Origin: Pseudomonas marvdashtae
GTDB taxonomy: Bacteria > Pseudomonadota > Gammaproteobacteria > Pseudomonadales > Pseudomonadaceae
Direction: 5' to 3'
Assembly: GCF_014268655.2 (NCBI RefSeq)
Contig: NZ_JABWQX020000001.1
Coordinates: forward strand, 3,068,001-3,132,000
Length of the DNA: 64,000 nucleotides
A model generated the notes under the pieces. That model saw nothing but the letters and a program-made list of their open reading frames with translations. It ran no database searches and had not been told where the DNA came from. Of this stretch, positions 19,232 to 56,700 are shown in pieces. Every line of letters starts with the position of its first letter. Position 1 is the first letter of the stretch. A program made the position numbers and the translations under genes.

Positions 19232-20209
19232 CTAGAACCACTCCTTGTGCTCTTCAAACGCCGCGCGGACCATCGCCACCAATCGCACGACTTCCTGCCT
19301 GTGCGCCTCATCGCCATGCACGGCCATCCAGACCTGCATCTGCATGTCGCCAGTGAACAATTCGGGCAAAGGCTGCAGGGTTTTGTCGAGCGAGCAAACG
19401 TAGTGCGGCAGCAGGCCGATACAGGCACTCCATTGAATCATCTGGCGCATCAACTCATAGGAGTTCACCTGCGTGACGCCTGACCGGCGCTCGCTGACGG
19501 CGCGGTTCCACGGGGCCAGCGAAGGCATTTTTGCGTAGCTGTGCAGGCTGACCAGCATGTAGTCCTGAAGCTCGGGAAGGCTGCGTGGGCGACTTGCTTC
19601 CCGGGAGTAGCGCTTGGCGATGTGCGGGATGTATTCCAGCTCGGCCAGGCAACTGAGTTCGGCCACCGGGAAAGATAGCTGCGGCGCTGTCGTCCGTGGG
19701 TCGGTGAGCCAGACGATGACATCCGCCTCAACCGACTCCTGGCCGGGTGGACCGTCGAGGCGCACCACGTCCAGGCGCACGTTGGCGTGTTGGCGCAAGA
19801 AGCCAAGCAGCGCGCGGCTGAGGACGTCGTGCAGCAACGGCTCGGCCACGGCCACCCGCACCAGGGTCTGCTCGGTGTCGAAGGCGTCAGGCAACGCCAG
19901 CAAAGCTCGGTGGGCCAGTAATTGGCTGCGCAGGTGACGGCCAGCCTGGCTGAGCATCAGCGCATTCCCTCGGTGCTCGAACAAGGGACGCCCGTAATGA
20001 CTGGATAACCGCGACAGTTTTTTCCGCAATAACGACGCTTTGACATTCAGGCTGCGCGCGGCCTGCATGAAACAGCTACAGCGTGCCGCCACCAGGAAAA
20101 ACTCCAGCGCTTGCGGATCCTTGAAGCCCTTCAGTGCCTGATCATCGGTTGCCACCGAAGCACCCAGCCGCACGTAATCTCGAACCTTGCCAATCTCCTC
20201 CAACGCCAT
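19232..20209 (-). CDS. LysR-family regulator at the end of the pdt operon
   Basis: The 325-residue protein starts at ATG 20209 after GGAGGAGGG. About 30 residues precede the DNA-binding domain, which reads LEFFLVAARCSCFMQAARSLNVKASLLRKKLSRL, a divergent LysR helix-turn-helix in which the typical 'QPAVS' is replaced by 'KASLL'. The effector domain contains VRVAVAEPLLHDVLSRALLGF and ends with a conventional RLVAMVRAAFEEH. It lies 41 bp behind the parvulin gene on the same strand. In P. aeruginosa a LysR gene (PA0701) occupies the same edge of the cluster. It may be co-transcribed with the operon or drive another target. The wider family is clear, but the role is not. Confidence 0.8.
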   Translation of the reverse strand: MALEEIGKVRDYVRLGASVATDDQALKGFKDPQALEFFLVAARCSCFMQAARSLNVKASLLRKKLSRLSSHYGRPLFEHRGNALMLSQAGRHLRSQLLAHRALLALPDAFDTEQTLVRVAVAEPLLHDVLSRALLGFLRQHANVRLDVVRLDGPPGQESVEADVIVWLTDPRTTAPQLSFPVAELSCLAELEYIPHIAKRYSREASRPRSLPELQDYMLVSLHSYAKMPSLAPWNRAVSERRSGVTQVNSYELMRQMIQWSACIGLLPHYVCSLDKTLQPLPELFTGDMQMQVWMAVHGDEAHRQEVVRLVAMVRAAFEEHKEWF

Positions 20210-20250
20210 ACGCCCTCCTCCCTAAGGTAGCTTCACGGCTGCCGCGCCGC

Positions 20251-21222
20251 TTAACGAACAGACTCCAATGCCTCGTTCAGTTGCGCGCCATCGATGCTCA
20301 ACGTCGCCTTGCTGACCAATCCTTCCAGATACGCCCTGGCCACCTGTTCCTGGCGCTGGTTGCGCAGCGCCTCGCGCAACTGTCCACGCACCTCATCCAG
20401 ACTCGCGGGACGTGCCGGTTGCATGTCGGTGAGCTTGAGAACGTGAAAACCCGCCTCGCTGCGCAAAGCGTCGGAAACACTGCCAACTCGCTGCCGCGCC
20501 AGCACTTGGCGCATTTGCGGCACGTATTGCTGCAACGGTTGCAGGCCGCTGTCGCCACCCCGCTGCGCCGTGGCCTGGTCATCGGAAAACTCCCGGGCCA
20601 ACGCGGCGAAATCAGCATTGGGAGCCTGGGCGCGGCGAGCCAGTTCGGTGGCTTTCTTGCGCACTGACTCTTCGTTGGCACCCGGCTCCAGCGCGATGAA
20701 AATCTGACTGACGCGATACAACGCCGGGCTTTGCAGCTGGCCCTTCGCTGCGTCATAGGCTTGTTGCAGCGCCTGCTCATCCGGGTACTCGGCAGGCACT
20801 TGGCTGATGGATTGCAGATAGGTGCGCAACAGGATCTGTTCGGTGGCGGCTCGGGTCATCTGTTGAATTTCCGGGCGTTCCTGCCAACCTTGCGCGTCGG
20901 CCTGCTGCAACAAGGCTTTCTCCGCCAGGCGCGTTCGAATCCAGCTTTCCAGGGCGCCACGATTGGCCCGCAGTTGCTCGCGCACCGGCGGTGCCAACGA
21001 GCCCAGCACACCGTTGAGTTCGGCGCTGCTCAATTGCAGTTCACCCAGACTGGCGACGGCCGGCGCGGTCTCGCCTTGGCCTCGGGCAGCTACCGGTTGT
21101 GTCGCCGGTACCGAGGCATGGGGGGAATCGCCAGGGTCGAGGGCCACTGCCACGGCGATGCCTCCCGCCACCAGAATGACAAGACTGGCGCCCACCCGTT
21201 TGCTGAACCTGCTCATCTCCAT
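20251..21222 (-). CDS. Parvulin-type (PpiC) periplasmic peptidyl-prolyl isomerase
   Basis: The protein has 323 residues from the ATG at 21222, which overlaps the YbjN stop codon (TGATG). A single N-terminal membrane segment or signal anchor (residues about 8-28) precedes a Pro/Ala-rich linker. A helical SurA/PpiD-like chaperone region (about 60-170) follows. The parvulin domain is at about 175-280, with YRVSQIFIAL, ADFAALAREFSDDQATAQRGGDSG and EAGFHVLKLTDMQPA, the parvulin signature. Such proteins assist folding of exported proteins in the periplasm. Placement at the end of the two-partner secretion operon suggests a chaperone for the exoprotein or the pore, as an inference. The position matches a PpiC-type gene in the homologous P. 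aeruginosa cluster. Confidence 0.85.
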   Translation of the reverse strand: MEMSRFSKRVGASLVILVAGGIAVAVALDPGDSPHASVPATQPVAARGQGETAPAVASLGELQLSSAELNGVLGSLAPPVREQLRANRGALESWIRTRLAEKALLQQADAQGWQERPEIQQMTRAATEQILLRTYLQSISQVPAEYPDEQALQQAYDAAKGQLQSPALYRVSQIFIALEPGANEESVRKKATELARRAQAPNADFAALAREFSDDQATAQRGGDSGLQPLQQYVPQMRQVLARQRVGSVSDALRSEAGFHVLKLTDMQPARPASLDEVRGQLREALRNQRQEQVARAYLEGLVSKATLSIDGAQLNEALESVR

Positions 21223-21704
21223 CAAGCCTCTTCAACCACGACTTCTGGCACTGGCGCAGCGTCCACCGCCTGTTGCTGGCGGGCCTGCTGGCTGTATTCG
21301 CGCAGGTACACCACGAACTCTTGCAGCAAGCGGTCCCAGAGCTCCAGCACGCCGCGCAAGTGATCCTCACTGACGCCTGCGGCGACGATGGCGTCCATCT
21401 CCATCACCAGGAATTCGCCCTGAAGGCTGAGGCGGGCAAAGCGGCGGCTGGCGTTCCAGACTTCCACCAGGCCTTCAGGCAACTTGCCCTCGATGCGCAA
21501 CGCGCAGCTGAACGTAAAGTCGAGGAAGCTACCCTCGGCGGCGGCCGGGTTGCCGAAGCGCACGGCAAAACCAATGCCCTGGCTGGCGCTCAACAACTGC
21601 ACGACCTCGCCCTGCTCGGTGCGATTGACGCGATAGCCAGCGGCTTGCAGTAACTCGCCGAGTTGCTCGGGGGTGATGCTCTGGATCAGTGCTTGTGTGG
21701 TCAT
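21222..21704 (-). CDS. YbjN-domain protein
   Basis: The 160-residue cytoplasmic protein has no signal peptide and starts at 21704 after AGGAAA. The body reads ITPEQLGELLQAAGYRVNR, IGFAVRFGNPA, FLDFTFSCAL and LVEVWNASRRFARLSLQGE, the pattern of the YbjN (type III secretion chaperone-like fold) family: an ambiguous binding domain of two helices and a sheet. A Glu/Val/Pro-rich tail ends it. YbjN relatives act as small adaptor or chaperone-like proteins. In this operon it is the only soluble cytoplasmic member, so it could bind the exoprotein before export or a regulator. That function is conjecture. Confidence 0.72.
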   Translation of the reverse strand: MTTQALIQSITPEQLGELLQAAGYRVNRTEQGEVVQLLSASQGIGFAVRFGNPAAAEGSFLDFTFSCALRIEGKLPEGLVEVWNASRRFARLSLQGEFLVMEMDAIVAAGVSEDHLRGVLELWDRLLQEFVVYLREYSQQARQQQAVDAAPVPEVVVEEA

Positions 21705-21740
21705 CGCGAAATTTCCTGTTGGGTAAAAAGTGGACGGTGA

Positions 21741-22388
21741 TTATTTGCCCGCGGTGGTCTTGGTGGCGTCGAACTGGGTCTGGTACAGCGCATCGCCATA
21801 ACGCTGCGCCAATTCCTCGAACTTCACCCGCGCGCCGCTGGCAAAGGGCTGGCGAATCTTCAGCACATCACTGACCTCGATGTTTTCGTAGGCGCCGAGG
21901 ATCTCTTTGGCGATGCCGTACATCTGCTGGTTCTTCGCCACACATTGCTGTACTTCACTCTCGCGACTGGTCAGGCTGGCTTGCAGGGTGGCGCGTGCCG
22001 CTTCGATACCGCGGGCGCGGCCCAGCAGTTCTTCGTAGGCTTGCTTGAATTTGCCGACCTGCTCGCTGCTGGCCGCCACCTGCGCCTGGGCGCTGCTGCG
22101 GACGGCATCCTGCTGGGCGCCCAGTTGTTCGTTCTGGCTGCGGGCCTTGGTCAGTTCGGCGGTCAGTTGCTTGATTTGCCCTTGCGCGGCGCTCAGTTGG
22201 CTCTCCGCTGCCTGGCGGGCAGCGGTGCCTTGCGCCTGTTCGCTCTGCAAGGCTTGCAACTGCGCAGTGGTGCTGCGCAATTGGGCACGCAGGCGCTCCT
22301 CCAAGGTTTGCGCCGAAGCGCCCAAGGCTGCGCCGAGGCCAAGCAACAACACCACAGCGTGGATGATGGGATGAAATGGCCTGATCAT
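21741..22388 (-). CDS. Periplasmic coiled-coil protein
   Basis: The protein has 215 residues from the ATG at 22388, after GGGAGGG. A signal peptide (residues about 1-25, LLLGLGAALGASAQ) is followed by a long heptad-rich coiled coil to about residue 135: ERLRAQLRSTTAQLQALQ, then repeated Gln/Ala/Leu helices. The C-terminal globular tail contains CVAKNQQMYGIAKEILGAYEN, with one cysteine, and VSDVLKIRQPFASGARVKFEELAQ. The tail pattern recurs in conserved hypothetical proteins next to pdt-type genes. It may bridge envelope layers or hold the exoprotein in the periplasm; the sequence does not decide. No enzyme motif is visible. Confidence 0.7.
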   Translation of the reverse strand: MIRPFHPIIHAVVLLLGLGAALGASAQTLEERLRAQLRSTTAQLQALQSEQAQGTAARQAAESQLSAAQGQIKQLTAELTKARSQNEQLGAQQDAVRSSAQAQVAASSEQVGKFKQAYEELLGRARGIEAARATLQASLTSRESEVQQCVAKNQQMYGIAKEILGAYENIEVSDVLKIRQPFASGARVKFEELAQRYGDALYQTQFDATKTTAGK

Positions 22389-22404
22389 AGTGTCCCTCCC
22401 GGCG

Positions 22405-24096
22405 CTAGAAGCGCGTATTGAGCTCGAGTTGCAGAACGTCGATAGCGAACGGCGCGCCATACACTTCTTCGCTGCTCAGCCAGCGCGCGGTCGCCAATAC
22501 GTTGTCTTCGATTCCATAGTTGCCGCCGAGGAAATAACCCTTGGCGTTGGTGCCCCCGAGGTGAAACGACGAATCGTTGAAGCCATCCGGCAAGGCATCC
22601 GGCTCGATGTACTTGTAGCCGGCGAACAGGTTCCAGTCGCCGCGCTTTTTCAGGTCCAGGGCACTGCCCAGGGTGAACTGCAGCATCCAGGCACTGTCAC
22701 CGCTTTCGATGTCGCCGTTCTCATCCAGGTTGTTGGCCAGCGCACCGGCCGAGCGCTTGCGCATCTTGCCTTCGTCGTAGCCGAGGTTGACCAGGTAGTT
22801 GCCCTGGCTGCGCAGCTTCAGGTCGTCGAACAGCAAGGTGTCCCACACCAGGTTGAGATCGAGCACGTTGAACTCCGAGGCCAGGCCTACGAACTGCGGC
22901 TGCGGCGAGGTGGTCGGCGCGGAAGGGTCCGGCACCAGGTCGCGCAGCTCCATCAACGTGTTGCCCTTTTGCATGAAGGCCGGGCGCGTTTCGTCGCTGT
23001 CACAGGCGGGGGCGCCGTCATAGATGGCACAAGGATTGGAGCGTCGCCCTTCGATGTCATCGAACTGGTAATAAGCCAACGCGCCCTTGATGTTGTTGTC
23101 CGGGGCAAACGCCCAGCTCGCGCCAAGCTGGGCGCCGTAGAGCCACTTGTTCTCGCTGTCTTCCTTGTTGAAACCATCGCTCGACGCGCTGTCGGAGCTG
23201 TACTCCACCGGGAACGCACCGAGGGTGCCGAACATCGCCAGGTCGCGGCTCAACGGGTGATTGAACGAGCCGGCCAAACCGTCGAAATTGAGGTCGTTGG
23301 AATACAGCAGATCGGTGGACATGAACGGGTTGGGCATGCGCCCGCCGGTAAAGCTCAGTTCCTTGGTCGGGCGATAGTTGAGGTAGCCTTGGTCGAGCCA
23401 CAGATCTTTTTTGTCAAAGCCGCCGCCCAGGGTCTGGGTGGTGGAGACTGGACTGCTGTCCGAGCCCGTGCCCAGGCGGATAGCCGCTGTCCATTGCGGG
23501 GAAAGCGCGGCCCGCATGCCCATGCGAGCCCGCAGGCGCAGCATGTTCTCGCGGTCTTCGCGGGTATTGAGCAACGGTGGAAGTTGCGAGCCGCTGTTGG
23601 GGTTGACGTCATAAGGCCCGCTGTTATTGAGCTCGGCAAAGTCGACGATCTCGTTACTGTTGCTGCCCGAGTAGAAGCGCGACTCGTTGCGCAAGCGCAC
23701 GTCGCCTTCAAAGGTGATGCGTGAGACCCAGTCGGGGAAGGTGTTGGGCTGGGCCCAGTTTTCCTGTTTGGCTTGGGCGATCACTTCGGCTTTCACCTGG
23801 TCGCGAATCTGTTCCCGAACGATGGCCGGCACATACTGCACCCGAACCTCGCCCGGCGCGCCTGGCGCTGGCACCGGTGCGGTGTTGGCGGCCGTCTGCC
23901 GGGCTTGCGTGGCCTCGGCTTCGGCCTGGTCGATCAGCGCTTGGGCCTGGTCCTGCTTGAGCACGCCTTGTTGCACCAACAGGCGAATCAGATTGACCGT
24001 CGCGTTCTGCGAGGGTGTCTGCGCCAACGCGCTGCCCGCCAGGCTGGCGATCACCAGGCCGACGCCCAGCGCCAATCGATTAACTTTGCAGATCAT
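22405..24096 (-). CDS. Putative outer-membrane porin
   Basis: The protein has 563 residues from the ATG at 24096, eight bases after AGGAG; a GTG at 24102 is less favoured. A signal peptide ends at GSALAQ. A short helical N-terminal region (LIRLLVQQGVLKQDQAQALIDQAE) resembles the periplasmic coiled coil of putative porins. The remainder is a beta-barrel: alternating hydrophobic strands such as WVSRITFEGDVRLRNESRF, WTAAIRLGTGSDSS, LSFTGGRMPNPF and a final strand VLQLELNTRF ending in aromatic-Arg-Phe, the usual OMP C-terminus. Loops hold CAIYDGAPAC, a probable disulfide. It belongs to the 'putative porin' group also found in gene clusters with ExbB/ExbD/TonB. No TonB box or plug domain is seen, so it is not a TonB-dependent receptor. 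Confidence 0.8.
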   Translation of the reverse strand: MICKVNRLALGVGLVIASLAGSALAQTPSQNATVNLIRLLVQQGVLKQDQAQALIDQAEAEATQARQTAANTAPVPAPGAPGEVRVQYVPAIVREQIRDQVKAEVIAQAKQENWAQPNTFPDWVSRITFEGDVRLRNESRFYSGSNSNEIVDFAELNNSGPYDVNPNSGSQLPPLLNTREDRENMLRLRARMGMRAALSPQWTAAIRLGTGSDSSPVSTTQTLGGGFDKKDLWLDQGYLNYRPTKELSFTGGRMPNPFMSTDLLYSNDLNFDGLAGSFNHPLSRDLAMFGTLGAFPVEYSSDSASSDGFNKEDSENKWLYGAQLGASWAFAPDNNIKGALAYYQFDDIEGRRSNPCAIYDGAPACDSDETRPAFMQKGNTLMELRDLVPDPSAPTTSPQPQFVGLASEFNVLDLNLVWDTLLFDDLKLRSQGNYLVNLGYDEGKMRKRSAGALANNLDENGDIESGDSAWMLQFTLGSALDLKKRGDWNLFAGYKYIEPDALPDGFNDSSFHLGGTNAKGYFLGGNYGIEDNVLATARWLSSEEVYGAPFAIDVLQLELNTRF

Positions 24097-24131
24097 GAAC
24101 ACAACTCCTAATGGTCTCTTGGCGACCCGGC

Positions 24132-24851
24132 TTAGCCCGGCCGGCGTCCTTGTAGGCGGATACGCACCGGCACCTGCAGCGAGGCGGGTGGACGTTCCAG
24201 ATTGGGTGAGGCGCGCAAGGTGGCCAGCACCTTGGCGTCAAGTTCGGCATCGCCGCTGGTGCGCCCCAGTTCCACCCGGATCACCCGGCCGGCCTGGTCC
24301 AGCCAGACGTCGGCCTCCAGGCGGAAAGCCAGGTTGCGCAGCTCGGGCGACTCGCGCAGCAAGCGCTGGAAGCTGTAAGCCAGGAACTGGCTGTAGGTGC
24401 CGTTGCCGAGGCGTCCGCCACCGGCGCCAGCCATCCCGCCGCCCTTGCCCGCGCCGATATTGAAAGCGTCGGAGCCAGCCTGGGCGTCGCTGTCCATTTG
24501 CATCGGGTCAGCCAGGTCTTCGGCGGGCGAAGGCGGTGCTTCTTCCTCCGGCTTGACTTCTTCTGGTTCGGGCGTGGGTTCGGGCTCGACGATTTTTTCT
24601 TCCACCGGTTTTTCCGGCTCCGGCGGTTTTTCCGGGGGCGGCGGCGGTGGCGGCAACGGAATGATCGCGGGAATCTTCGGCGCCTCGCGACGGATGCCGC
24701 TCATATCGTTAGCCCATGTCCACAGCAGCCAGGCCAGGCCCGCGCCCACCAGCAAACCGGCAGTCCATTGCAATACGCGGCGCACCCTGCCAGTGCCGTC
24801 CCGCTGTCGTTCCAGGTGTCCGTTTTGCGGCTGTTCAGGAAAAGACGTCAT
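24132..24851 (-). CDS. TonB-like energy transducer
   Basis: The protein has 239 residues. A cytoplasmic arm (1-24) precedes one membrane helix (about residues 26-46: LQWTAGLLVGAGLAWLLW). A proline- and glutamate-rich periplasmic spacer follows (IPLPPPPPPPEKPPEPEKP, then repeated PEPE-type steps). A Gly-rich patch (GAGKGGGMAGAGGG) leads to a C-terminal TonB-type domain with RLEADVWLDQAGRVIRVELGRTSGDAELDAKVLATL, the classical fold end. The gene follows exbD with a 3-bp gap. The transducer would carry the ExbB/ExbD proton-motive signal to an outer-membrane partner. Candidates inside the operon are the TpsB pore or the putative porin, neither of which normally needs TonB. Confidence 0.82.
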   Translation of the reverse strand: MTSFPEQPQNGHLERQRDGTGRVRRVLQWTAGLLVGAGLAWLLWTWANDMSGIRREAPKIPAIIPLPPPPPPPEKPPEPEKPVEEKIVEPEPTPEPEEVKPEEEAPPSPAEDLADPMQMDSDAQAGSDAFNIGAGKGGGMAGAGGGRLGNGTYSQFLAYSFQRLLRESPELRNLAFRLEADVWLDQAGRVIRVELGRTSGDAELDAKVLATLRASPNLERPPASLQVPVRIRLQGRRPG

Positions 24852-24854
24852 GAC

Positions 24855-25280
24855 TCAGCCCTGGCTCGGTTTGCCGGTGACCAGGCCCACCTGGGACAAC
24901 TCCAGGCGGCGCAACAGGTCCAGCACTTCAATGACTTTCTGGTACTGCACGGCCGAGTCACCGCGCACGATCACCGGAAAATCCGGGCTCTGGGCTTTCT
25001 CGATGCGCAAGCGATCTTCAAGTTCGTTGAGGGTGACCGGGTAGGCATCGAGGAACACCTGGCCGCCATCATTGATGGAAATCGCCTTGGTCTTGGGCTG
25101 CGAAAGCGAGATGGTCGAGCTGGCCTTCGGCAGGTTGATCTGGATCCCGGAGACCTGGGCGGTGGCGGTGAGAATAAACATCACCAGCACCACCATGAGC
25201 ACGTCCACCAACGGCGTGATGTTGATGGTGTCGACGGCGGCATCTTCGTCGTCGTCCGAGGCGCTATTGAGGTTGGCCAT
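24855..25280 (-). CDS. exbD: ExbD/TolR-family proton-channel subunit
   Basis: The 141-residue protein has an acidic start (SASDDDEDAAVDTINITPLVDVLMVVLVMFILTA, shown in two parts as DDDEDAAVDTINITPLVD and VLMVVLVMFILTA). The membrane helix carries the conserved Asp (PLVD) used for proton conduction. The periplasmic part contains INLPKA, ISINDGGQVFLDAYPVTLNELEDRL and VIVRGDSAVQYQKVIEVLDLL, the ExbD/TolR C-terminal domain. It follows the exbB gene by 10 bp and precedes the TonB gene by 3 bp, so the three are one translational unit. The assignment is firm. Confidence 0.9.
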   Translation of the reverse strand: MANLNSASDDDEDAAVDTINITPLVDVLMVVLVMFILTATAQVSGIQINLPKASSTISLSQPKTKAISINDGGQVFLDAYPVTLNELEDRLRIEKAQSPDFPVIVRGDSAVQYQKVIEVLDLLRRLELSQVGLVTGKPSQG

Positions 25281-25290
25281 GGTCGCTCCC

Positions 25291-27123
25291 CTACACCGTC
25301 AACGATGGGCTTGCGACGTGGTTGCCCCGTCGATGCGCCGCTTCACTGGACTGGCTTTCGCCGTGGACTTCGGCCAGGCGGGTGATGAACTCGTCGACGA
25401 ATACCCGCATGTCGGCGCTGACTTCCTTGTTGCGCGTGGTCAGGCGGTTGTAGCCAAACAGCGCCGGGATCGCGACGAACAACCCCATGGCCGTGGCCAG
25501 CAACGCGGCTGCCATGCCGGGGGCGATGGCGTTGATGTTTACATCACCGGCCATGGCGGTGCCGAGGAACACCACCATGATCCCCAATACAGTCCCCAGC
25601 AGGCCGATGTAAGGGCCGCCGGCGATGGCGTTGGACAAGGTCGACAACTTGGAACTGAGCTGTTGGTTTTCCCGGGTCCGTACACCGTCCATGGAACAGC
25701 GGATGGCTTCGATGGTGGCTGCGGAGATCGACGAGGTGTCGGCGCCCTGGTCGCGGCGGGTGCGGATTTCGGCAACCGCCACGCCATACAGACGCCACAG
25801 CGACGAATCGCTTAGGCGCTGCGCCAGGTCGCGGTCATCGGCGAGCAGTTCCAGCCGCGTCCCAACCTTGGCGAAATGACTGCGGAAGACTTCGTTGGCA
25901 CGGCTGACTCGGCTGACATTGCGGCTCTTGCGCACCATGATCACCCACGACTGCAGCATCATCAGCACCAGGACGGCAATGATCACCCAGGCGTCCAGCG
26001 GCACCGCGTTGAGCAGGAAACCCAGGCTGCCGAAACCGAAGCCGGACTGTTCTTCGTCCACCCCATAGACCACCAGGCGCGACTCGGCGCCCTGGGCGGT
26101 GGCATCGGCCAGGATCTGCTCGGGCGAACGGGCGACGCGGGACAAGCGCAGTTCATCGAGAGCGCCGGTGAAGGCTTGATACGTAGCGGTCGGTGCCACC
26201 GCGCCGGCATCGACGGCAGGCGGTAAGTCGGCGCCGATGGCAATCGCCCCCTGCAAGGCTGGCAACGGTTGCGCCAGGTTCGCCGCCGGCTTTCCATTCA
26301 CATACAAACGCAAGCCGCTGGCGTCAGCTGTCAACGCCAGGTGCTGCCATTGCCCCAGTGCCACGGCCTGGTTGGCCACGGCGCGCTGGCCGTTTACTTC
26401 CACAAAGGGCACGCCTTGGTTCACGCCCACCAGCAGCGCATTGCCGGCATCACGACGGGCCAGCAGCAGTTGCTCGCCTGCGCCCTGCTCCATTCGCAAC
26501 CAGGTGCTGAAGGTCAACGCACCACCCGCGCTCACGCCCAGGGATGGACTGGCCGGCAGCAACAGCGGCTGGCCGTTGAGCTGTGCCGAGCGCCCGATGA
26601 CACCGTCGATGATGTTTGCCGGGGCGTTCTGCGCGTGGTTGGCAAAGGCACTGGCGTCCCGTGGCGGTGCGCCAACGGCACCGTCAAAGTGATAGACCAG
26701 GCTGTAGTCGGCATCGAAGGCTGACTGAGCGTTGCTTGTCGCCGGCGCTTTCGGGTTGCCGTAGTACATCCAGACATCCTGGCGCTTACCGCCCTCCACC
26801 AGAGGCACGTCCACCCAGATCAGCGCCATGCCCATCAACGGGTCGAAACTCTCGATCTGGTGGTTGAGCACGGTGTGATCATCGGTGGCGACAAAACGGA
26901 TGTCCGAACCGTTTTCGTTAACGCCATCGAAGGTGAAATTGCCAGTGTGCAAACGCACCAGCAGCGAGGTGCGCCCCACCGCCTGGCTGATCGCCGCGCC
27001 CTGGGGCGTGGTGTCGATGCTGATCTGTTTGCGGTAGTGCCAATCGTCCTGCCACCAGGCGCTGGCCGTTGCCGGCAGCACAAGGCCCAGGCAAGCGAGA
27101 AGAATGAAAATCAAGCGATGCAT
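25291..27123 (-). CDS. exbB: ExbB-type proton channel fused to periplasmic DUF2341/LamG domains
   Basis: The protein has 610 residues from the ATG at 27123. A signal peptide (1-22, ending PATASA) leads into a WWQDDWHYRKQISIDTT start and a DUF2341 domain (about 25-135, with DIRFVATDD, FDPLMGMALIWVDVP and VWMYYGNPKA). A concanavalin-like LamG domain covers about 140-335 (AGGALTFSTWLRMEQG, WQHLALTADASGLRLYVNGKP, GALDELRLSRVARS). The membrane part begins near 370 (VPLDAWVIIAVLVLMMLQSWVI). It contains the MotA/TolQ/ExbB segment with PYIGLLGTVLGIMVVFLGTA, ISAATIEAIRCSM and ALLATAMGLFVAIPALFGYN. It is therefore a proton channel carrying a large glycan-binding-like head in the periplasm. Ordinary ExbB is about 240 residues. 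The pdtB gene ends 31 bp upstream. Confidence 0.88.
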   Translation of the reverse strand: MHRLIFILLACLGLVLPATASAWWQDDWHYRKQISIDTTPQGAAISQAVGRTSLLVRLHTGNFTFDGVNENGSDIRFVATDDHTVLNHQIESFDPLMGMALIWVDVPLVEGGKRQDVWMYYGNPKAPATSNAQSAFDADYSLVYHFDGAVGAPPRDASAFANHAQNAPANIIDGVIGRSAQLNGQPLLLPASPSLGVSAGGALTFSTWLRMEQGAGEQLLLARRDAGNALLVGVNQGVPFVEVNGQRAVANQAVALGQWQHLALTADASGLRLYVNGKPAANLAQPLPALQGAIAIGADLPPAVDAGAVAPTATYQAFTGALDELRLSRVARSPEQILADATAQGAESRLVVYGVDEEQSGFGFGSLGFLLNAVPLDAWVIIAVLVLMMLQSWVIMVRKSRNVSRVSRANEVFRSHFAKVGTRLELLADDRDLAQRLSDSSLWRLYGVAVAEIRTRRDQGADTSSISAATIEAIRCSMDGVRTRENQQLSSKLSTLSNAIAGGPYIGLLGTVLGIMVVFLGTAMAGDVNINAIAPGMAAALLATAMGLFVAIPALFGYNRLTTRNKEVSADMRVFVDEFITRLAEVHGESQSSEAAHRRGNHVASPSLTV

Positions 27124-27154
27124 AACGGGGTGCTCCAAGGTCTGTGCCTACCGG

Positions 27155-28798
27155 TCAAAAGGTCGCCTGCACATTGAAGTGCACGCGTGAATCGTGTTTA
27201 CGGGTGTTCGGGCCGTCCTTGAGCGGCAGGCCCCAGTCGAGGCTGCCCGACAGCCATTCGCGCAACGTGGCGCGGGTGCCGAAGCCGATACTCGCCAGGC
27301 TGTAGTCGGCCTCCTGGTCGGGCAGCGCGTCTTGCAGGGCCATCTGCGCGCCTTCGGCAAAGACGTATAAACGCCAGTTGTCGACGTAGCTGCCGAGGCC
27401 TTTACCCAGGTGCTTGCTCAACGACGGTGTGCGCAGTTCCTGGGAAAACAGCACGCCGTCATCGCCCGTGCGTTCCGCTGCGAGATAACCGCGCACACTG
27501 GTGGCGCCACCGGCGGAAAACTGTTCGTTGGAAACCAGCGGCCCGGAGGCCAATTGGAAGCTCAGCTTGCTTGCCGCTTGCCAGTCGCCGGAAAAATTCC
27601 GGGTGAAGGTGCTGTCGCCCTTGAACACCGCGAAGCTGGGATTGGCCTCGTAGCGCTTGGCCCGAAATTCATCGGCGTCGCTGCCATAGCCGAAGAAGCT
27701 GCGGGTGCCGGCAACGATGCTCAGGCCCAGGCCGAACTGTGAGGTTTCGGTGTAGCGAAAGCCGTTGTAGGCCAAGGTGATCGGCGCGTACTTGATCGGC
27801 ACCTCGTCATTGGAGCCGCCAAACTGCAGGGCTTCCTCGAAATCCTTGAAGTCCACGCCCACCGACAGCGAGTTGGCCCAAACGCCCTGGGACGGCACGT
27901 TGTAGATCAGCGACGCGCCATAGGAATGCCCCTTGCCCAACACGTTGCTGCCGCCGATGGTCGCGACGTTGCTGTCGGACTGGTAGCCAGACAACTGCAC
28001 GTTCCAACGCTCGCTCAGGGGCGCGTTATAGGAGCCCGACCAGACTTGCGCGTTGTCCCGGTCTTCGGGGGCGGTGAAATAAGTCAGCGAGGCCGAGTGG
28101 CCGCGTTGCCAGAGGTTGTTGTGGCCCAGCGTGACCACCGAACGCAGTTTCTCGGTGTCGGCGCTGTAGTCATTGTTCAGCCCGACACTGGCTTGCCAGG
28201 GGTTCTTGTCTTCGACTTGCAGGTCGACATCCATGGTTCCCGGACGTTGCCCTTCGCGCACCACCGGCACTACCTGGCGCCCAGGGTTGCGGTTGGCCAC
28301 GGCCAACTGGCTTTGCACTGCGCTGAAATCGGCCACTTTGCCTTCTTCCAGCGCCGGCACTTCTTCGCGGACATTGACCGGTGAATAGTGCTCGGTGCCA
28401 ACCACGCGCACCCGGCCGATCTTGGTTTCGCTGACTTGCAGGTACACCACGCCGCCTTCCACCTGCTGCTCCGGCAGTTCGACGAACACCGACTGGTAAC
28501 CCTTGGCCTGGTAGCGCTGTTGCAGGGCGTCGCGGGCGCCTTCGATGTCGGTGAGCTTGCGTTGCGGCCCCAGGAACGCATACACCGCCTCTTCGATTTC
28601 CCGGGCATCGAGCACGGTATTGCCGCGCACTACATACTCATTCACGTCCACCAGGCGCGCAGGCGTTCCAGCCTCGGCCGCCACCGGCGTATCGGCTTCC
28701 TCGGCCCACAACGCTGGCGCCTCGGCGACGAGCATCAGCGCGAGCGCCATGGGCAGGTATGGCCTGCACCTGCCGATGTTGAAGTCCCAATGATCCAC
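27155..28798 (-). CDS. pdtB: TpsB outer-membrane pore, two-partner secretion (PdtB-like)
   Basis: About 547 residues are read from a GTG at 28798 placed after GAGGGGG; an in-frame start at 28825 lacks such a site. The signal peptide ends near PALWAEE. A POTRA pair (about residues 50-205) begins VNEYVVRGNTVLDAREIEEAV and includes GYQSVFVELPEQQVEGGVVYLQVSE. The C-terminal 16-strand barrel holds the FhaC/ShlB hallmark VRGYLAAERTGDDG (the VRGY motif of loop 6) and ends RVHFNVQATF with a terminal Phe. It would transport the TpsA exoprotein encoded by the next large gene. Order and partners match PdtB (PA0692) of P. aeruginosa. The gene is separated from exbB by 31 bp and from phdA by 99 bp. Confidence 0.92.
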   Translation of the reverse strand: MDHWDFNIGRCRPYLPMALALMLVAEAPALWAEEADTPVAAEAGTPARLVDVNEYVVRGNTVLDAREIEEAVYAFLGPQRKLTDIEGARDALQQRYQAKGYQSVFVELPEQQVEGGVVYLQVSETKIGRVRVVGTEHYSPVNVREEVPALEEGKVADFSAVQSQLAVANRNPGRQVVPVVREGQRPGTMDVDLQVEDKNPWQASVGLNNDYSADTEKLRSVVTLGHNNLWQRGHSASLTYFTAPEDRDNAQVWSGSYNAPLSERWNVQLSGYQSDSNVATIGGSNVLGKGHSYGASLIYNVPSQGVWANSLSVGVDFKDFEEALQFGGSNDEVPIKYAPITLAYNGFRYTETSQFGLGLSIVAGTRSFFGYGSDADEFRAKRYEANPSFAVFKGDSTFTRNFSGDWQAASKLSFQLASGPLVSNEQFSAGGATSVRGYLAAERTGDDGVLFSQELRTPSLSKHLGKGLGSYVDNWRLYVFAEGAQMALQDALPDQEADYSLASIGFGTRATLREWLSGSLDWGLPLKDGPNTRKHDSRVHFNVQATF

Positions 28799-28897
28799 AC
28801 ATCCCCCTCGATTCAATTGCGCCACGCGCGCAGCGCCTGCTGCAAAGCCGCGCGCCGCATGACGCGCTGCCTTGGCATCGTGTTGTTGCCTGACGGT

Positions 28898-29497
28898 TTA
28901 TTTGCGTTTGGAATGGCCTGCGTGCCTGGAAAGCCAGGTGTGCAACAAAGCGAAGTTCAGCGAAAACTCCGGCATGTGCATCAGGTCGCCGCAGAACACT
29001 TCGCTGACGATGCGCTCGAGCAATTTCGCCGCGTGCGGGCTGTCCAGCAGCTCGCCGATGTCCCGCACGAAGACCGAGAAAGCCCAGACACGCTGGTTCA
29101 ACTCAAGACCCACAAACCAGCGGAACAACAGGTTGTAATTGAGCTGCTCGTACAGCTGTTTTTCACTGGGCAGCGAGTACAGCAGTTGCAACAGCAAAGC
29201 GAGCATCAAGGCCGATACCGGCACCTGGATCTGGTGTTCCCGCGCCCATTGCTGCAAAGGCTCGGACGCGACCTCCAGCAGTTCCTCGATCTGTGGGCGC
29301 AACATCACCAGGGAATGACCTGGCGGCACGTAGCTGGACAGTTCCTTCAAGGCACTCTGCCAATCGTCCTGGGACACGATCCACACCCAGGGCGCGCCGT
29401 AGCGGTACACCGAGACCGGTTTTTTGCGCGCGGCTTCAACAATTTTCGACAGGCGCTGGTCCAGCTCCTGCATGCCCACTTTCGAGTAACTTTCCAT
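28898..29497 (-). CDS. phdA: PhdA-like protein: Phd antitoxin N-terminus plus IS-type transposase domain
   Basis: About 199 residues run from the ATG at 29497; an ATG at 29527 adds ten without a ribosome site. The N-terminal 55 residues (SYSKVGMQELDQRLSKIVEAA, then KKPVSVYRYGAPWVWIVS) are a Phd/YefM antitoxin-like DNA-binding domain. The middle, about 90-165, reads ALLLQLLYSLPSEKQLYEQ, LNYNLLFRWFVGLEL and VWAFSVFV. This matches the N-terminal (DUF772) domain of IS5/IS1182-type transposases, where 'YSIxSERQLxEQ' and 'LLFRWFVGL' are hallmarks. There is no toxin gene and no transposase catalytic domain. In P. aeruginosa the same position holds phdA (PA0691), linked to control of phage-mediated lysis and DNA release in biofilms. 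The fusion looks fixed and maintained. Confidence 0.78.
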   Translation of the reverse strand: MESYSKVGMQELDQRLSKIVEAARKKPVSVYRYGAPWVWIVSQDDWQSALKELSSYVPPGHSLVMLRPQIEELLEVASEPLQQWAREHQIQVPVSALMLALLLQLLYSLPSEKQLYEQLNYNLLFRWFVGLELNQRVWAFSVFVRDIGELLDSPHAAKLLERIVSEVFCGDLMHMPEFSLNFALLHTWLSRHAGHSKRK

Positions 29498-29643
29498 AGA
29501 CCCCAACGCCCCTGTCACACCTGGCATCCAGCGCGAATAGCGCCAGAAAAAGTTGTCCGGCTTCCCTGCAAAAGGCCTTTTCGTCCACAGCGATCCTGCG
29601 CCGTTGCCGTTTCACACAACCTTGACCCCGGCCACCTGCCACT

Positions 29644-29749: not shown

Positions 29750-32700
29750 TTAGAGCGTCAGGTTGCGTTGTTCCTCCGGGGTCAACTGATTACGCGCCTG
29801 GTCGTCCAACCGTCCGGCGCCCAACACCCGCACGCTGTTGTTCGGTTCATGATCCGGTGCCCGGCTGGCACCTTCCTGCGACGGTGCCAGGCGCTCGTTG
29901 CCAAAGCCCAGGACCTGCACGCTGAACACCGACGGCATGCGGTTGCGCGAGGCGGCCTGTTGCTCGCGAGCCACGCCTTCCGCCGCATCGCTGGCCGACG
30001 CCGCGGCGGAACTGGCGTTGGTCAGCGCGCCAGTGTTGACCACGGCGCTGACCGGCACGCCGTTGGACTTGCCTTGCACCTGAATGTTGGCCGCGTTCAC
30101 CACATGCAAGGCGGCGATGTTGATATTGCCCGAGACCCGGATACCCGCCTCTCCCGCATCGATGGTGCCGAGCGGCGCGAGCAGGTCGATATCGCCCGGT
30201 GCGACCTCCGCAATAGGGTTGAGCGTGGCGATACCGGCGCCAGTGCTCGGCACCGACGGCGACAGGGTGACGTTGCCCCAATTGTCGTAGACACGCTTGG
30301 GCGGTGTGTACACCAGGGTGGTTTTCGAACCGCGACCGGCGTTGATATCCCCTGTCGCGGACCAGGCGAGGATGTCGCCGCCAAAGGTGGTCATGATCCG
30401 GCTTTGTCCCAGCAACACACTGCCGTTGCTGAACAACTGGATGTCGCCGACCCCTTGGGTGATGACCCCGGCACTGGACGGCGGCGCTTCGCCTTCGATA
30501 CCAAAAACCTGCTGCCCGCCAGGCGTCAGCATCTGGATATCGCCGCCAAAGTTGGTGTGCACCCCCGCTCCGCCGAACATCGTGATATCGCCCTGGTAGG
30601 CCAGGGGATTGCCCGCCACGTCGTGGGTCGGGAATAGCGCGGCGATGGCGTTGCGACCGCGCAGGTAGCTACCGGAACGAGGACTGCTGGCGTTGTTGTA
30701 CTCGCGACCACCGGCACGCAGTTCGGCGAAGTACACCTCGCGGGCAAACACCCGCTGCTGCTCGGCCGGCAACGCGGCGAAATAAGCCTGCGCCTGATCG
30801 GCCTCACCGCTGAAGCCATACCGCGACGCCAGCCAGGCCGCCAACTCGACCTCATAGGTTTTCGCCACCTTGCCCGGCTGTTGGGCCAGGCCGACAGCCG
30901 CGTCCGCCAGGTTGGCCGGATCCAGGTATTGACGCACGAAGCCCAGGTAATCCGGCCCCGCCGCACCCACGCCGGCCTGCATCACAATGCTTGCGCCGGG
31001 GCGATTGTCACCGGCTTTCACCGGACCGAGGCTGGTCACCGCGGCCTTATCTTCCATCAGGATATTGCGTCCGGCGCTGATCTCCAGCGTACCGGGGCCG
31101 GCGACATTGAAGGTGCTGTAGAGAATGTCCCGGCCGGCGGAGACAACGGAGATGTCGGTGGGGTCGTCGTGGACGAACAGGTTGCCGGTGCTTTTCGCAT
31201 CGCCAGGGAGCTGGGGCACGGAATTGTTGGTGAGCTGTCCGCTGTTGACTATGTCGCGCCCCGCCATGATCCAGGCCGGCCGAGCAGCTTCGTACCAGAT
31301 ATCACCCTCGTAGGGTTGAACGGAAAAGGACAGAATCTCCCCCGTGCGCAACCCCACGATATCGCCGTTCACCGCGTAGAAGCGTGTCGGCTGGTCCGCG
31401 CCCCGGTAACTGCCTTCGGTGCCGGAGCCGCCGAAAGCGAACAGAGTACCCGTGCCATTCGTGTCGGTTCTCAGGCCGGTACTGTCCATGTAGCTGAACC
31501 CCGGACGAGCCACCGTGGCCAGGCTCGCCTGAGGAGCGTTGGTGGGGGAAATGGTAAAACCTCCCGCGTAAATCGAGTCGGACGCGAGAAACTCCAGTTG
31601 CGCCTGCGCGCCCGGCGCCAGCACTAGCGAGTAAGGCAGATTGGGCATCGCCGTGCCCCCCGTCCAAGTCCCGGAAGGTCCGTAGTAAAGGCTTCCGTTG
31701 GCGGCGGTGGCTCGAAGGATGGACGGATAGACAAAACGACCGTCGGTGGGTGCCGAGTCGCCCGGCGCCGGGGCGCTACCGCCTATGGCCACCTCGCCGA
31801 CTCGCGTGAACGGCGTCAGGTTGCCCCCCGCCGTCAACAGGTCAATGGCGGTGTGATCGGTCCACAGGCTGAACCACGAGGAGCCGGTGCCCTTTCCTGC
31901 GGCCCCCAAGTTGACGAGCTGTGTACCTTGCGAGAGCAGACGCCCGGCATCGGCGGCGCCGCCCAGCACCAGATCGCCTCGGGCATCCAGGGCCACGGTG
32001 GCGTCCCCCGGCACCACGATCATGCCTCCGGTGGCACTTGCCGAAGTGGCTTGGAACGGATCGTAGGCCCGGGATTCACGCGGGTCCTGCCACAGCGCAT
32101 GCGGGCCGCTGACCAGTTCGATGCCGCCAAAAGAACCGGCATGGGCCCTGACGCTCCCGCGCAAATTGATCAGACTGCCGTTCAATGCATGACGCTGGGC
32201 GACCGGACCTTTGCTGTTGGCGCTTTCCAGCGCCCGCGCGCTCAGCGATGGGTTGAGCCCACCACCGACGCGCAGGCTCAAGTCACCGCCGCCGGTCATC
32301 TGCAACTGACCATTGACCATGCGCCCCGTCGAGCCCACGGCCAGTACCAAGCCCTGGCTGCGCGTAGCGTATTGCTCGCCGGTGTCGCCACGTGGCGCCA
32401 ACATGCCGGCATCACCCGCCACATCCACGGCCAGGTTGCCGCCGCCCAAGGTGCCGAGGCCGGTAAAGCCGACCAGTGCCATGTTTTGCCCTTCGGCCGC
32501 GAAGGTGCCGAAGTTGATCCACCAGGCCGTGGGGGTGGTGCCGTCGACGCCGCCGCCCTGGCGCCACAGCCAGTTGCCAACGCTTGAGCTCGCGTTCAGC
32601 CCGGTCCGGCTGATGACATCGCCGGTCAAGTCTGCGCCAACGGTCAACGACAGGTTGCCGCCCTGATCGGGATACCAGGCGCGGTAGAGGCTGCTCGGGC

Positions 32701-42259: not shown

Positions 42260-42353
42260 CACTACGGATCCTTTTTACGCAGGGCGAATTCGGTAGCGCC
42301 CGCTGGACGAGGCGCGCAAATGACTAATCCCAAGGCAGGTTGACGCCATCGCG

Positions 42354-43696: not shown

Positions 43697-44036
43697 GAAG
43701 AATCTCCTTTCATCGTGTCTGGACGTTGGTAGTTCGCTTGTGCTTCTCATCGCGACCGCTGCCCCGAGCAGATTTCCAGCGCTCTTTTAAAGGGGTGGCC
43801 ACGGCGTAGAAGCTCTCAACATCCGGTGACAGAGAAAGGAAAAAATCTCGGGTGTTCGGCGCTGTTTTTCCTAAATATTCTCGAGAGTTACCGACATCTT
43901 CCTGACATTTCGCCCAGCTTTCGCAGCATGAGCGAAACGCCATGGCGTGCCCTCCCCCGTGGGCCGTAGCCTGGCGCGCGGTACATGTCGAACGGATGAA
44001 CCCGAGTGGCGCTCTGGTGTGGGATTACGCAGGGTT
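43697..44036. other. Promoter-bearing intergenic region, DING gene / hxcS
   Basis: The 340-bp space between hxcS and the DING gene (both minus strand) holds no gene. It contains a Pho-box-like direct repeat at 43892-43907 and an AT-rich stretch (CTAAATATTC) near 43871-43880. A second, weaker CTGTCAC-type site lies at 43826-43832. No hairpin terminator for hxcS was recognised. Confidence 0.6.
43892..43907 (-). promoter_or_regulatory. Pho-box-like repeat upstream of the DING/LapA gene
   Basis: On the minus strand TGTCA and TGTCG are spaced exactly 11 bp start to start (TGTCAGGAAGATGTCG), the arrangement PhoB dimers recognise. It lies about 195-210 bp upstream of the ATG. Phosphate-starvation control would suit a DING or phosphatase gene. 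Confidence 0.6.
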
Positions 44037-51743: not shown

Positions 51744-51745
51744 GG

Positions 51746-52749: not shown

Positions 52750-52750
52750 A

Positions 52751-54356: not shown

Positions 54357-55364
54357 TTAGCTGACCAGCACGATGCCGCCCGGTAGCTCGGTGATCGAGG
54401 CGCCATAGGCATCGCGAATCAGCACGGCGACATTTTCCAATTGCGCCAAGCTGAAGCGCGCCTGCACCTTGCGCTGCCCCAGTTGCGCGTTCATCAGCAC
54501 AATCATCCCAGGGCGGTAGCGGTTGATTTCATCAATCACGCTCGCCAGCGGTGCGTCGTTGAACACCAGCATCTGCTCACGCCAGGCCATCACTTGCTGT
54601 GTGTCGAAGGCGCTGGGTTGGCCTTGTCGCTGCGCGGTATAGGTCAATTGCAGGCCTTGCACCAGGCTTACGCGACGTCCTTGATGCTGGACTTGCACGC
54701 TGCCTTCCAGGCACGTTACGCACACGCTGCCATCGATGGCCCGTACATTGAACCGCGCGCCATCGGCCAGCAGCTCGGCATTGCCGGCCAATACGCGCAA
54801 AGGCGTACGGGCCTGGACCTCCACTTCGCCGCTCAGCACTTCGATGGCGGCATCGCCAGCGGCCACGGTGCGCTGGCTGATACGCGTCTGGGTATTGAGT
54901 TCAAGCACTACGCCCTGGACCAGGTCGACACGCCGTTGTTCACCCACATTGGTATGAAAATCAGCCCCCATGGACCAGCCATCCAACAGCGCCGGACGCG
55001 CTACCAATACCGCCACTGACGCGGCAATCGCCCCGCCGAGAAACGCTCGCCGGCCGAAACGTCGGGGGTGATCGATGACCTTAGCCGCCTGTACGCCTTG
55101 GAGCATTTGCTCGGCAGGCGCCATGGCTTGCCACAACTGCCGGGCCTGGGCAAATGCCCGGGCATGTTCCGAGCTCTGTGCGCTCCACCGGCGAAAGGCC
55201 TCGGCATCGGCTTGGGTGGCGTGCCCGGACGTCAGGCGCACCAGCCAATGGAAGGCTTCGTCCCGGAGCTGGCTAACCGTGGCAGTGGCCGATTCAGATG
55301 CGCTTATGGACATGTTTTTCAAACGTGCAATGACTCGAGAAAGTACGCGCGACACGCGCTTCAT
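54357..55364 (-). CDS. vreR: FecR-family anti-sigma factor (VreR)
   Basis: About 335 residues are read from the ATG at 55364, 4 bp after the vreI stop; an ATG at 55313 is possible but lacks a ribosome site. The FecR N-terminal cytoplasmic domain (about 30-80) has DEAFHWLVRLTSGHATQADAEAFRRWSAQSSEHARAFAQAR, quoted here by its ends DEAFHWLVRL and WSAQSSEHARAF. One membrane helix is at about 108-128 (FLGGAIAASVAVLVARPALL). The FecR periplasmic domain (about 145-245) includes VLELNTQTRIS and VEVQARTPLRVLAGNAEL. A C-terminal STN-like part ends it. It holds sigma VreI inactive and receives the signal from VreA. A pre-protein cleavage site cannot be seen directly. Confidence 0.9.
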   Translation of the reverse strand: MKRVSRVLSRVIARLKNMSISASESATATVSQLRDEAFHWLVRLTSGHATQADAEAFRRWSAQSSEHARAFAQARQLWQAMAPAEQMLQGVQAAKVIDHPRRFGRRAFLGGAIAASVAVLVARPALLDGWSMGADFHTNVGEQRRVDLVQGVVLELNTQTRISQRTVAAGDAAIEVLSGEVEVQARTPLRVLAGNAELLADGARFNVRAIDGSVCVTCLEGSVQVQHQGRRVSLVQGLQLTYTAQRQGQPSAFDTQQVMAWREQMLVFNDAPLASVIDEINRYRPGMIVLMNAQLGQRKVQARFSLAQLENVAVLIRDAYGASITELPGGIVLVS

Positions 55365-56638: not shown

Positions 56639-56700
56639 AGACGGCTTCCGGCCCGAACGGCGTGTCGACGCCCTGCGTTGGCGCATCATGAGAGCTGTAC

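What the first reader, a model, noticed from the sequence alone, without database searches (positions are those of the whole stretch)
19232..29497. Ten-gene operon couples a TPS pore to an ExbB-ExbD-TonB motor and envelope proteins
phdA, tpsB, exbB, exbD, tonB-like, porin, coiled-coil, ybjN, parvulin and LysR genes follow on one strand with gaps of 99, 31, 10, 3, 35, 16, 36, overlap and 41 bp. Two-partner secretion is considered energy-source-free at the outer membrane and needs only TpsB. A dedicated proton-driven TonB device, a second barrel, a coiled-coil spacer and a foldase in the same operon suggest a multi-component exporter, or a release and sensing device for the giant exoprotein, that has not been explained mechanistically.
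Basis: partly seen in the sequence, partly recalled or inferred. Interest (0 to 1): 0.85.

Follow-up and report, generated by a model that had tools for sequence, protein, structure and literature searches.

The report
Motor-coupled two-partner giant protein exporter
A set of bacterial genes that pairs an outer-membrane pore for exporting a giant surface protein with its own ion-driven inner-membrane motor and a second outer-membrane barrel turns out to be an old, widely inherited unit, although export of this kind is thought to need no energy source.

Summary
The ten-gene run is real and matches P. aeruginosa PA0691-PA0701 (pdtB, exbB2-exbD2-tonB4; pdtA upstream), published as one VreI/PhoB-controlled operon whose TonB set is "still uncharacterized". 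New here: the conserved unit is giant TpsA, TpsB, ExbB, ExbD, TonB, Porin_5 and a coiled-coil protein; phdA was seen only in the Pseudomonas loci. In 398 Pseudomonadota genomes, DUF2341-ExbB (13), DUF3739-ended TpsA (14) and full-length Porin_5 (14) occupy the same genomes; the one mismatch is a contig edge that cuts exbB. TpsB-family genes occur in 177, so the motor tracks a substrate class, not two-partner secretion in general. Motor-linked TpsBs form one group, have a short stretch without a recognisable plug helix H1, and lack DxxG (0 of 63; 27 of 41 unlinked). Their TpsAs end in a low-complexity tail with a strand-like motif (about VEVLGFG), not found in 30 control C-termini. Porin_5 is predicted as a 16-stranded barrel with periplasmic helices, nearest OmpM1, not a plugged TonB-dependent transporter. 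Best reading: a TPS subclass whose motor acts on the TpsA-TpsB-Porin_5 assembly to finish export or control surface holding and release. The mechanism is inferred; an HxuCBA-like uptake device remains a rival.

The parts
29750..42262 (-). giant TpsA (pdtA homologue), 4170 aa; TPS domain at residues 142-393
   Evidence: ORF; Pfam
30050..30382 (-). DUF3739 domain of TpsA (residues 3961-4071), marker of the motor-linked TpsA class
   Evidence: Pfam; same 14 of 398 genomes as full-length Porin_5
29897..29929 (-). conserved C-terminal strand-like motif VFSVQVLGFGN in the low-complexity tail of TpsA
28898..29527 (-). phdA (DUF772 transposase-like, sub-threshold Phd); seen only in the Pseudomonas loci
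   Evidence: Pfam; 14 of 93 loci
27155..28825 (-). tpsB (pdtB homologue): two POTRAs and barrel, no recognisable H1 plug helix, no DxxG motif
25291..27138 (-). exbB with periplasmic DUF2341 and LamG domains (exbB2); likely ATG start at 27123; Ala544 at the place of the Glu of housekeeping ExbB/TolQ
24855..25280 (-). exbD (exbD2); transmembrane Asp kept
24132..24851 (-). tonB-like (tonB4): one hydrophobic N-terminal segment, Pro-rich part, TonB C-terminal domain
22405..24102 (-). Porin_5 outer-membrane protein (PA0696 homologue): predicted 16-stranded barrel with N-terminal periplasmic helices
21741..22460 (-). periplasmic coiled-coil protein (PA0697 homologue); likely ATG start at 22388
   Evidence: 74 of 93 loci
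21222..21704 (-). YbjN-family protein, accessory
   Evidence: Pfam; 26 of 93 loci
20251..21225 (-). PpiC/parvulin foldase, accessory
   Evidence: Pfam; 29 of 93 loci
19232..20209 (-). LysR regulator, mostly a Pseudomonas add-on
   Evidence: Pfam; hits in 19 of 93 loci, not all at the end of the operon
55931..56689 (-). VreA: STN signalling domain plus a C-terminal domain closer to the motor TonBs than to two housekeeping TonB/TolA proteins of the genome
55368..55943 (-). VreI ECF sigma factor, likely regulator of the operon
   Evidence: Pfam; regulation in P. aeruginosa from PMC2729926 and PMC4971064 passages
54357..55364 (-). VreR FecR-like anti-sigma factor
   Evidence: Pfam

Best explanation
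A subclass of two-partner secretion with its own motor. TpsB (without plug helix) threads the giant DUF3739-type TpsA, N-terminus first, to the surface. The dedicated ExbB-ExbD-TonB complex, whose ExbB carries a periplasmic DUF2341-LamG domain, uses the ion gradient to act mechanically on the outer-membrane assembly of TpsB, Porin_5 and the TpsA tail. Most likely this finishes export of a chain of about 4000 residues and then holds, tensions or releases TpsA, whose C-terminal low-complexity tail carries a strand-like motif suited to docking by strand addition. Shown here: the gene set, its strict co-inheritance, the TpsB group and its losses, and the tail motif. Inferred: that the parts form one complex, that the motor works on it, and the order of events.
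For: DUF2341-ExbB in 13, DUF3739 in 14 and full-length Porin_5 in 14 of the same 398 genomes; 13 of 13 DUF2341 genomes have DUF3739 (hypergeometric 1.7e-23, 4.8e-22 without the query genome, 2.7e-16 by genus). The odd genome G284 carries exbB (cut by the contig edge), exbD, tonB and porin. In 21 of 43 loci with DUF3739 in view, tpsA ends -3 to 241 bases before exbB. In 41 control loci around TpsB genes outside the clusters there is no hit for exbB, exbD, tonB, porin or coiled coil. In G268, porin and coiled coil sit beside tpsB while exbB-exbD-tonB lie on another contig, so the porin goes with the pore. Motor TpsBs are one side of a branch with SH-aLRT 98 (46 against 41 rows, quick tree), have a short pre-POTRA stretch (no helix there in the AF2 model, low confidence) and no DxxG (0 of 63 against 27 of 41). 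The tail motif learnt on 31 tails is found in 19 of 24 others at p<0.001 and in 0 of 30 control C-termini (several of the 24 are near-copies). ExbD Asp kept in 101 of 101.
Against: No experiment or complex prediction shows contact between motor and TPS parts. CdiB without H1 and linker still secretes without any motor (PMC7644211, passage), and TpsA translocation has been reconstituted without external energy (PMC5422565, passage). The nearest TpsB outside the group, L165, also has a short N-terminus (gap 16) with no motor gene in its 20 kb, so loss of H1 does not require the motor. The Glu of housekeeping ExbB/TolQ is absent, so the motor may be atypical. P. aeruginosa tpsA, tpsB, tonB-homologue and PA0696 insertion mutants overexpressing vreI kept their virulence in zebrafish (PMC2729926, passage). 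The TpsA tail does not resemble the genome's own Ton boxes (1 of 44 at p<0.05).
Confidence: 0.6

Rival explanations
1. Uptake device like HxuCBA: TpsA at the surface captures a ligand (under phosphate starvation perhaps a phosphorus-rich polymer) and Porin_5, energised by the dedicated TonB, brings it in. Export by TpsB is passive as usual.
For: TPS plus TonB-linked uptake is known in HxuCBA (PMC5422565, passage). P. aeruginosa expresses the operon on phosphate starvation, and the regulon includes a type II system and its phosphatase (PMC2729926, PMC4971064, passages). Porin_5 has the same 14-genome distribution as DUF3739, and its model is porin-like.
Against: Porin_5 shows no plug domain by Pfam and is predicted as a 16-stranded porin-like barrel nearest to OmpM1, not a TonB-dependent transporter. 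TpsB itself is altered in the group, which uptake alone would not explain. The set also occurs in methylotrophs, alphaproteobacteria and Verrucomicrobia.
Confidence: 0.2
2. Sensing device: the TonB-like and VreA C-terminal domains read the state of TpsA export or surface tension and feed VreR-VreI, so that the motor serves signalling more than transport.
For: VreA joins an STN domain to a C-terminal domain that scores 64 bits with a profile of motor TonBs only, against 29 and 21 bits for a TonB and a TolA-like protein of the same genome. vreA, vreI and vreR lie in the window. The VreI-inducing signal is unknown (PMC7035377, abstract in the listing).
Against: Most motor loci show no VreA-like gene within 10 kb: 21 TonB-like genes besides the motor TonBs in 93 loci, some of them short and without an STN-like N-terminus. 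VreA's TonB/TolA-like domain was already noted in PMC2729926 (passages).
Confidence: 0.1
3. Plain co-regulation: independent envelope genes carried in one phosphate-starvation operon without mechanical coupling.
For: In P. aeruginosa all are under one VreI/PhoB promoter (PMC4971064, passage), and phdA, ybjN, ppiC and lysR vary between lineages.
Against: Matching presence and absence of ExbB-DUF2341, DUF3739 and Porin_5 across 398 genomes, also where the genes are split over contigs.
Confidence: 0.07

Closest known systems
P. aeruginosa PdtA/PdtB two-partner system with exbB2-exbD2-tonB4 and PA0696-PA0701
   Same: Same gene set and regulators (vreAIR); this window holds the corresponding locus of another Pseudomonas (gene numbers and names from PMC2729926, PMC4971064 and PMC7035377 passages; the PAO1 sequence itself was not compared).
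   Different: Nothing basic in the locus; the passages seen call the TonB set uncharacterised and do not report the co-inheritance, the TpsB losses or the tail motif.
FhaC/FhaB and CdiB/CdiA two-partner secretion
   Same: TpsA with TPS domain, TpsB with POTRA and barrel; best structure matches of the TpsB model are CdiB 6wim and FhaC 4ql0.
   Different: No recognisable H1, no DxxG, a co-inherited IM motor and Porin_5, and a DUF3739 plus tail motif on TpsA.
TonB-ExbB-ExbD uptake systems
   Same: ExbB core with the two Thr positions kept, ExbD with transmembrane Asp, Pro-rich TonB with C-terminal domain.
   Different: ExbB fused to DUF2341-LamG with Ala/Ser at the usual Glu; no plug-bearing transporter in the cluster.
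SiiAB-SiiE (type I) and GldLM/PorLM (type IX)
   Same: What it would work like: an ion-driven motor dedicated to a giant surface protein. PMC12204202 (passage) names SiiAB with type I secretion; PMC8986121 (search listing) describes proton-dependent motors of type IX secretion. SiiE is recalled.
   Different: Different export pathway; homology beyond the motor superfamily not tested.
HxuCBA haem acquisition
   Same: TPS genes with a TonB-linked partner (PMC5422565, passage).
   Different: HxuC is a TonB-dependent transporter; here the barrel is porin-like and the motor itself is in the cluster.
OmpM1 of Veillonella parvula
   Same: Nearest fold of Porin_5 (E 3.5e-16): attachment porin barrel; its periplasmic stalk is recalled.
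   Different: 15% identity; Pfam showed no SLH domain in Porin_5.

Membership tests
Two-partner secretion, FhaC/CdiB type | TpsB with POTRA_2 and ShlB barrel | tested here: met
   Pfam; fold
Two-partner secretion, FhaC/CdiB type | cognate TpsA with N-terminal TPS domain | tested here: met
Two-partner secretion, FhaC/CdiB type | N-terminal H1 helix plugging the TpsB barrel (PMC9355242, passage) | tested here: not met
   pre-POTRA stretch median 23.5 aa in 46 dereplicated linked against 56 in 41 unlinked TpsBs, p 1.7e-12; no helix there in the low-confidence stretch of the model. Ranges overlap: 12 of 63 linked are 37 or longer, and for those the absence rests on their Ala/Pro-rich make-up, by eye
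Two-partner secretion, FhaC/CdiB type | DxxG motif on strand 1, stated to be in all TpsB transporters (PMC7644211, passage) | tested here: not met
   0 of 63 linked, 27 of 41 unlinked
Two-partner secretion, FhaC/CdiB type | export without an energy source | not testable with these tools
   needs secretion assays in motor mutants
TonB-ExbBD system | MotA_ExbB, ExbD and TonB C-terminal domains in one cluster | tested here: met
   TonB match is weak (Pfam 22.5 bits, cut-off 22; NCBIfam 24.3, below its cut-off 27.1)
TonB-ExbBD system | ion-pathway residues: ExbD Asp, ExbB Thr148/Thr181 equivalents | tested here: met
   Asp 101 of 101; T516 and T549 invariant in 12 ExbBs; the matching to E. coli Thr148/Thr181 (named in a PMC12215075 passage) is by eye
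TonB-ExbBD system | Glu in the PG-x-x-E-A-L stretch of ExbB/TolQ | tested here: not met
   Ala 83 and Ser 11 of 94 motor ExbBs; Glu in the 3 own-genome paralogues that aligned, 3 others did not align; its E. coli number E176 and its importance are recalled, the searches gave no text on it
TonB-ExbBD system | a plug-bearing TonB-dependent transporter as partner | tested here: not met
   no Plug among the ten proteins; the porin model has 16 strands. The genome's 23 Plug matches lie outside the operon
HxuCBA | TBDT next to tpsA and tpsB | tested here: not met
SiiAB/SiiE or type IX | type I or type IX export parts | not tested
   analogy only

The most novel reading that the evidence does not exclude
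The exported protein itself is the load of the motor: the C-terminal tail of TpsA stays in the periplasm and its conserved strand (FSVQVLG, LSVEVLG and the like) is captured by the ExbD dimer of its own motor in the way that ExbD captures the D-box of TonB (E. coli ISVTMVT), so that ion flow pulls directly on a giant surface rod threaded through an unplugged TpsB.
Probability: 0.15. Interest if true: 0.92.

Novelty: new variant of a known kind. Interest (0 to 1): 0.75.

Why it matters
Type V secretion is the textbook case of outer-membrane export without an energy source. A group of TpsBs that lacks the plug helix and the DxxG motif and is inherited together with an ion-driven motor and a second barrel would be the exception that makes the energy question directly testable, and would put TPS beside type I (SiiAB) and type IX (GldLM) as pathways with a dedicated motor for a giant surface protein. 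It also gives a candidate for the unknown signal of the VreAIR system.

Tried and rejected
Ton-box reading of the TpsA tail: a profile of the genome's own Ton boxes (23 transporters) gave p<0.05 in 1 of 44 tails, so dropped as the lead reading. D-box reading: 35 of 55 tails match the published hydrophobic/hydrophilic pattern against a mean of 1.8 in shuffles, but any amphipathic strand would, and the same pattern matched neither of two TonB-looking proteins of the genome, so its rarity in motor TonBs (3 of 87, shuffles 1.9) means nothing; kept only as the novel case. My first hand-made motif pattern (34 of 44) was fitted to the data; the split-sample test replaces it, and there 5 of 24 tails fail p<0.001 (p 0.002 to 0.016), and the 24 hold near-copies (four Stenotrophomonas-like, several Pseudomonas). 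The 30 control C-termini are TpsA-like or giant frames beside unlinked tpsB, not checked one by one. Phd/transposase gene as a machine part: rejected. LysR counts are loose. Plasmid search found nothing. PDB sequence searches gave no relative for porin and TonB and nothing convincing for YbjN. The tree is a quick one (SH-aLRT only, some long branches), its root is not inferred. The pre-POTRA measure uses a hydrophobicity rule for the signal peptide and can be off by several residues (one linked value, 89, looks like a start-codon overcall); four unlinked TpsBs are also short (6, 16, 34, 40). In one search, three tpsA-exbB overlaps of 157 to 520 bases come from over-long frame calls. Six of the 93 loci show neither tpsB nor a DUF3739 TpsA in view (L033, L073, L080, L102, L118, L119); the genomes of L033 and L102 have a tpsA and tpsB on another contig (DUF3739 was seen in that of L033 only).
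Full report
What is there. The ten genes of the finding are present, on the minus strand, in the order and with nearly the gaps given. The set corresponds to P. aeruginosa PA0691-PA0701 by domains and order as described in the papers below; the PAO1 sequence itself was not compared. The giant tpsA (pdtA) lies upstream at 29750-42262 and genes that look like vreA, vreI and vreR at 56689-54357. The genome has 5.9 Mb and is a Pseudomonas by the nearest named ExbB proteins (99% identity).

What was known. PMC2729926 (passages seen) reports the VreI regulon including PA0690-PA0699 and notes that in P. fluorescens, P. [quoted passage not shown] PMC4971064 (passages) gives one promoter, PphdA, for phdA, pdtB, exbB2D2, tonB4 and PA0696-PA0701. 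[quoted passage not shown] PMC5422565 (passages) states that no hydrolysable energy source or gradient powers type V export. Searches for TPS with ExbB and TpsB, for DUF2341 with ExbB/LamG, for DUF3739, for tonB4/PdtA/PA0695/PA0696, and for TPS with proton motive force listed no paper that explains the motor; I judged most by listing only, and the library is partial. PMC12505986 (passages) names DUF2341 as an N-terminal domain of unknown function on ExbB-like proteins. PMC4104836 (a survey of the Omp85/TpsB superfamily, passages) has no occurrence of 'helix', 'TonB' or 'ExbB' in the text held. No report of natural TpsBs without H1 was noticed in the listing or in the passages read.

The conserved unit. 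DUF2341 was found in 13 of 398 Pseudomonadota genomes, 14 matches; each of the 13 loci around the matches outside the query genome holds the ExbB relative. In these 80 plus 13 loci (L028 and L055 are almost surely one record): exbD in 92, tonB in 88, porin in 85, coiled coil in 74, tpsB in 57, TPS domain in 30, ppiC in 29, ybjN in 26, lysR in 19, phdA in 14; several contigs end close to exbB, so these are lower bounds. DUF3739 was in view in 43 of 93 loci, and in 21 of these its gene ends -3 to 241 bases before exbB. In 87 of 93 loci tpsB or a DUF3739 tpsA is in view. Of the 36 loci without tpsB within 10 kb, 19 genomes were searched: 19 of 19 have a TpsB-family gene, and in 16 its coordinates and strand fit a place just upstream of tpsA (record identity inferred from coordinates), giving tpsB-tpsA-exbB-exbD-tonB-porin; four such stretches were read and agree. 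The exceptions are G268 (tpsB-porin-coiled coil beside tpsA on another contig), G405 (tpsA-tpsB on another contig) and G412 (not resolved).

Co-inheritance. In the same 398 genomes DUF3739 occurs in 14, full-length Porin_5 (E below 1e-100) in 14 (six more genomes have only weak, partial matches) and DUF2341 in 13. The DUF3739 and full-length Porin_5 genomes are the same 14. The one without DUF2341, G284, carries exbD, tonB, porin and an exbB cut by the contig edge. The TpsB family PF03865 occurs in 177 (171 over the curated cut-off); G284 is not among them, which fits its broken contigs. So 164 genomes have TpsB without DUF2341, and none of these has DUF3739. The motor follows the substrate class.

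An altered TpsB. Motor-linked TpsBs fall on one side of a branch in a quick tree of 87 rows made without the N-terminal stretch (46 linked, 41 unlinked; SH-aLRT 98). The stretch between signal peptide and first POTRA has a median of 22 residues in 63 linked and 56 in 41 unlinked TpsBs; after removal of near-copies 23.5 against 56 (46 and 41). The ranges overlap: 12 of 63 linked are 37 or longer, 4 of 41 unlinked are 40 or shorter. Linked stretches are richer in Ala and Pro (0.39 against 0.23) and poorer in charged and polar letters (0.28 against 0.37). An AlphaFold2 model (pLDDT 87.9, 45 sequences) has no helix in this stretch, which is of low confidence; its best structure matches are CdiB and FhaC. 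The DxxG motif of strand 1 is in 0 of 63 linked and 27 of 41 unlinked; 59 of 63 linked have Asn where DxxG has Asp. PMC7644211 (passages) ascribes both H1 and DxxG to TpsB transporters and also shows that CdiB without H1 and linker still secretes.

A tail motif. The DUF3739 TpsAs end in a low-complexity tail of 52 to 106 residues with a strand-like motif such as SVEVLGFG, in several the last residues (44 tails, by eye; L115 and a few others deviate). A profile learnt on 31 tails finds it in 19 of 24 others at p<0.001 against shuffles and in 0 of 30 C-termini of TpsA-like frames beside unlinked tpsB. It does not look like the Ton boxes of this genome but has the alternating form of the TonB D-box that ExbD binds (35 of 55 against a mean of 1.8 in shuffles; D-box from PMC10907165 passages). 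This last point is weak, as any amphipathic strand would fit.

The motor. ExbD keeps its transmembrane Asp in 101 of 101; ExbB has Ala or Ser in 94 of 94 where the three own-genome ExbB/TolQ paralogues that aligned have Glu. ExbB has a signal-peptide-like N-terminus followed by DUF2341 and LamG, hence a large periplasmic domain, in five copies if the stoichiometry is as in E. coli (inference).

The second barrel. Porin_5 is modelled (pLDDT 85, 59 sequences) as a barrel with 16 long strands and periplasmic helices (strands counted from the listing); Foldseek's best hit is OmpM1 of Veillonella, an outer-membrane attachment porin. A conserved but low-confidence stretch between its helices (VRVxYVPE) is another candidate docking site.

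Reading. The simplest account is a TPS subclass with a dedicated motor acting on the outer-membrane assembly and on the TpsA tail, for completing export or for holding and releasing the giant protein. Steps shown: gene set, co-inheritance, TpsB group and losses, tail motif. Steps inferred: physical complex, direction of force, purpose. The uptake rival (HxuCBA-like) and the sensing rival (VreA shares the motor TonB's C-terminal domain) are not excluded and could both hold in part.

Noticed in passing
window 44037-53729: Type II secretion genes (E, F, secretin D, L, K, GspH-like), as the Hxc system beside the operon in P. aeruginosa.
   Followed up: partly
window 42464-43750: PBP_like_2 protein just upstream of tpsA.
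   Followed up: no
L039 (G000:C2:440000-459900), L191: A second TPS of the same genome: a TpsA-like gene and tpsB followed by a plug-bearing TonB-dependent receptor, as in HxuCBA.
   Followed up: no
L038 (G000:C1:675000-694900): A third TPS with a 3089-aa frame behind tpsB and a small gene behind that, perhaps a contact-dependent inhibition locus.
   Followed up: no
L165 (G294): TpsB nearest to the motor group, with a short N-terminus and no motor genes in 20 kb: a possible intermediate.
   Followed up: partly
L036, L073, L098, L104, L107-L110, L112-L115: Two exbD genes in tandem in the motor operon of these 12 loci, many of them betaproteobacterial.
   Followed up: no
L052:20093-20560, L054:16468-16974: Short, apparently secreted proteins with little more than a TonB-like C-terminal domain near the motor operon.
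   Followed up: no
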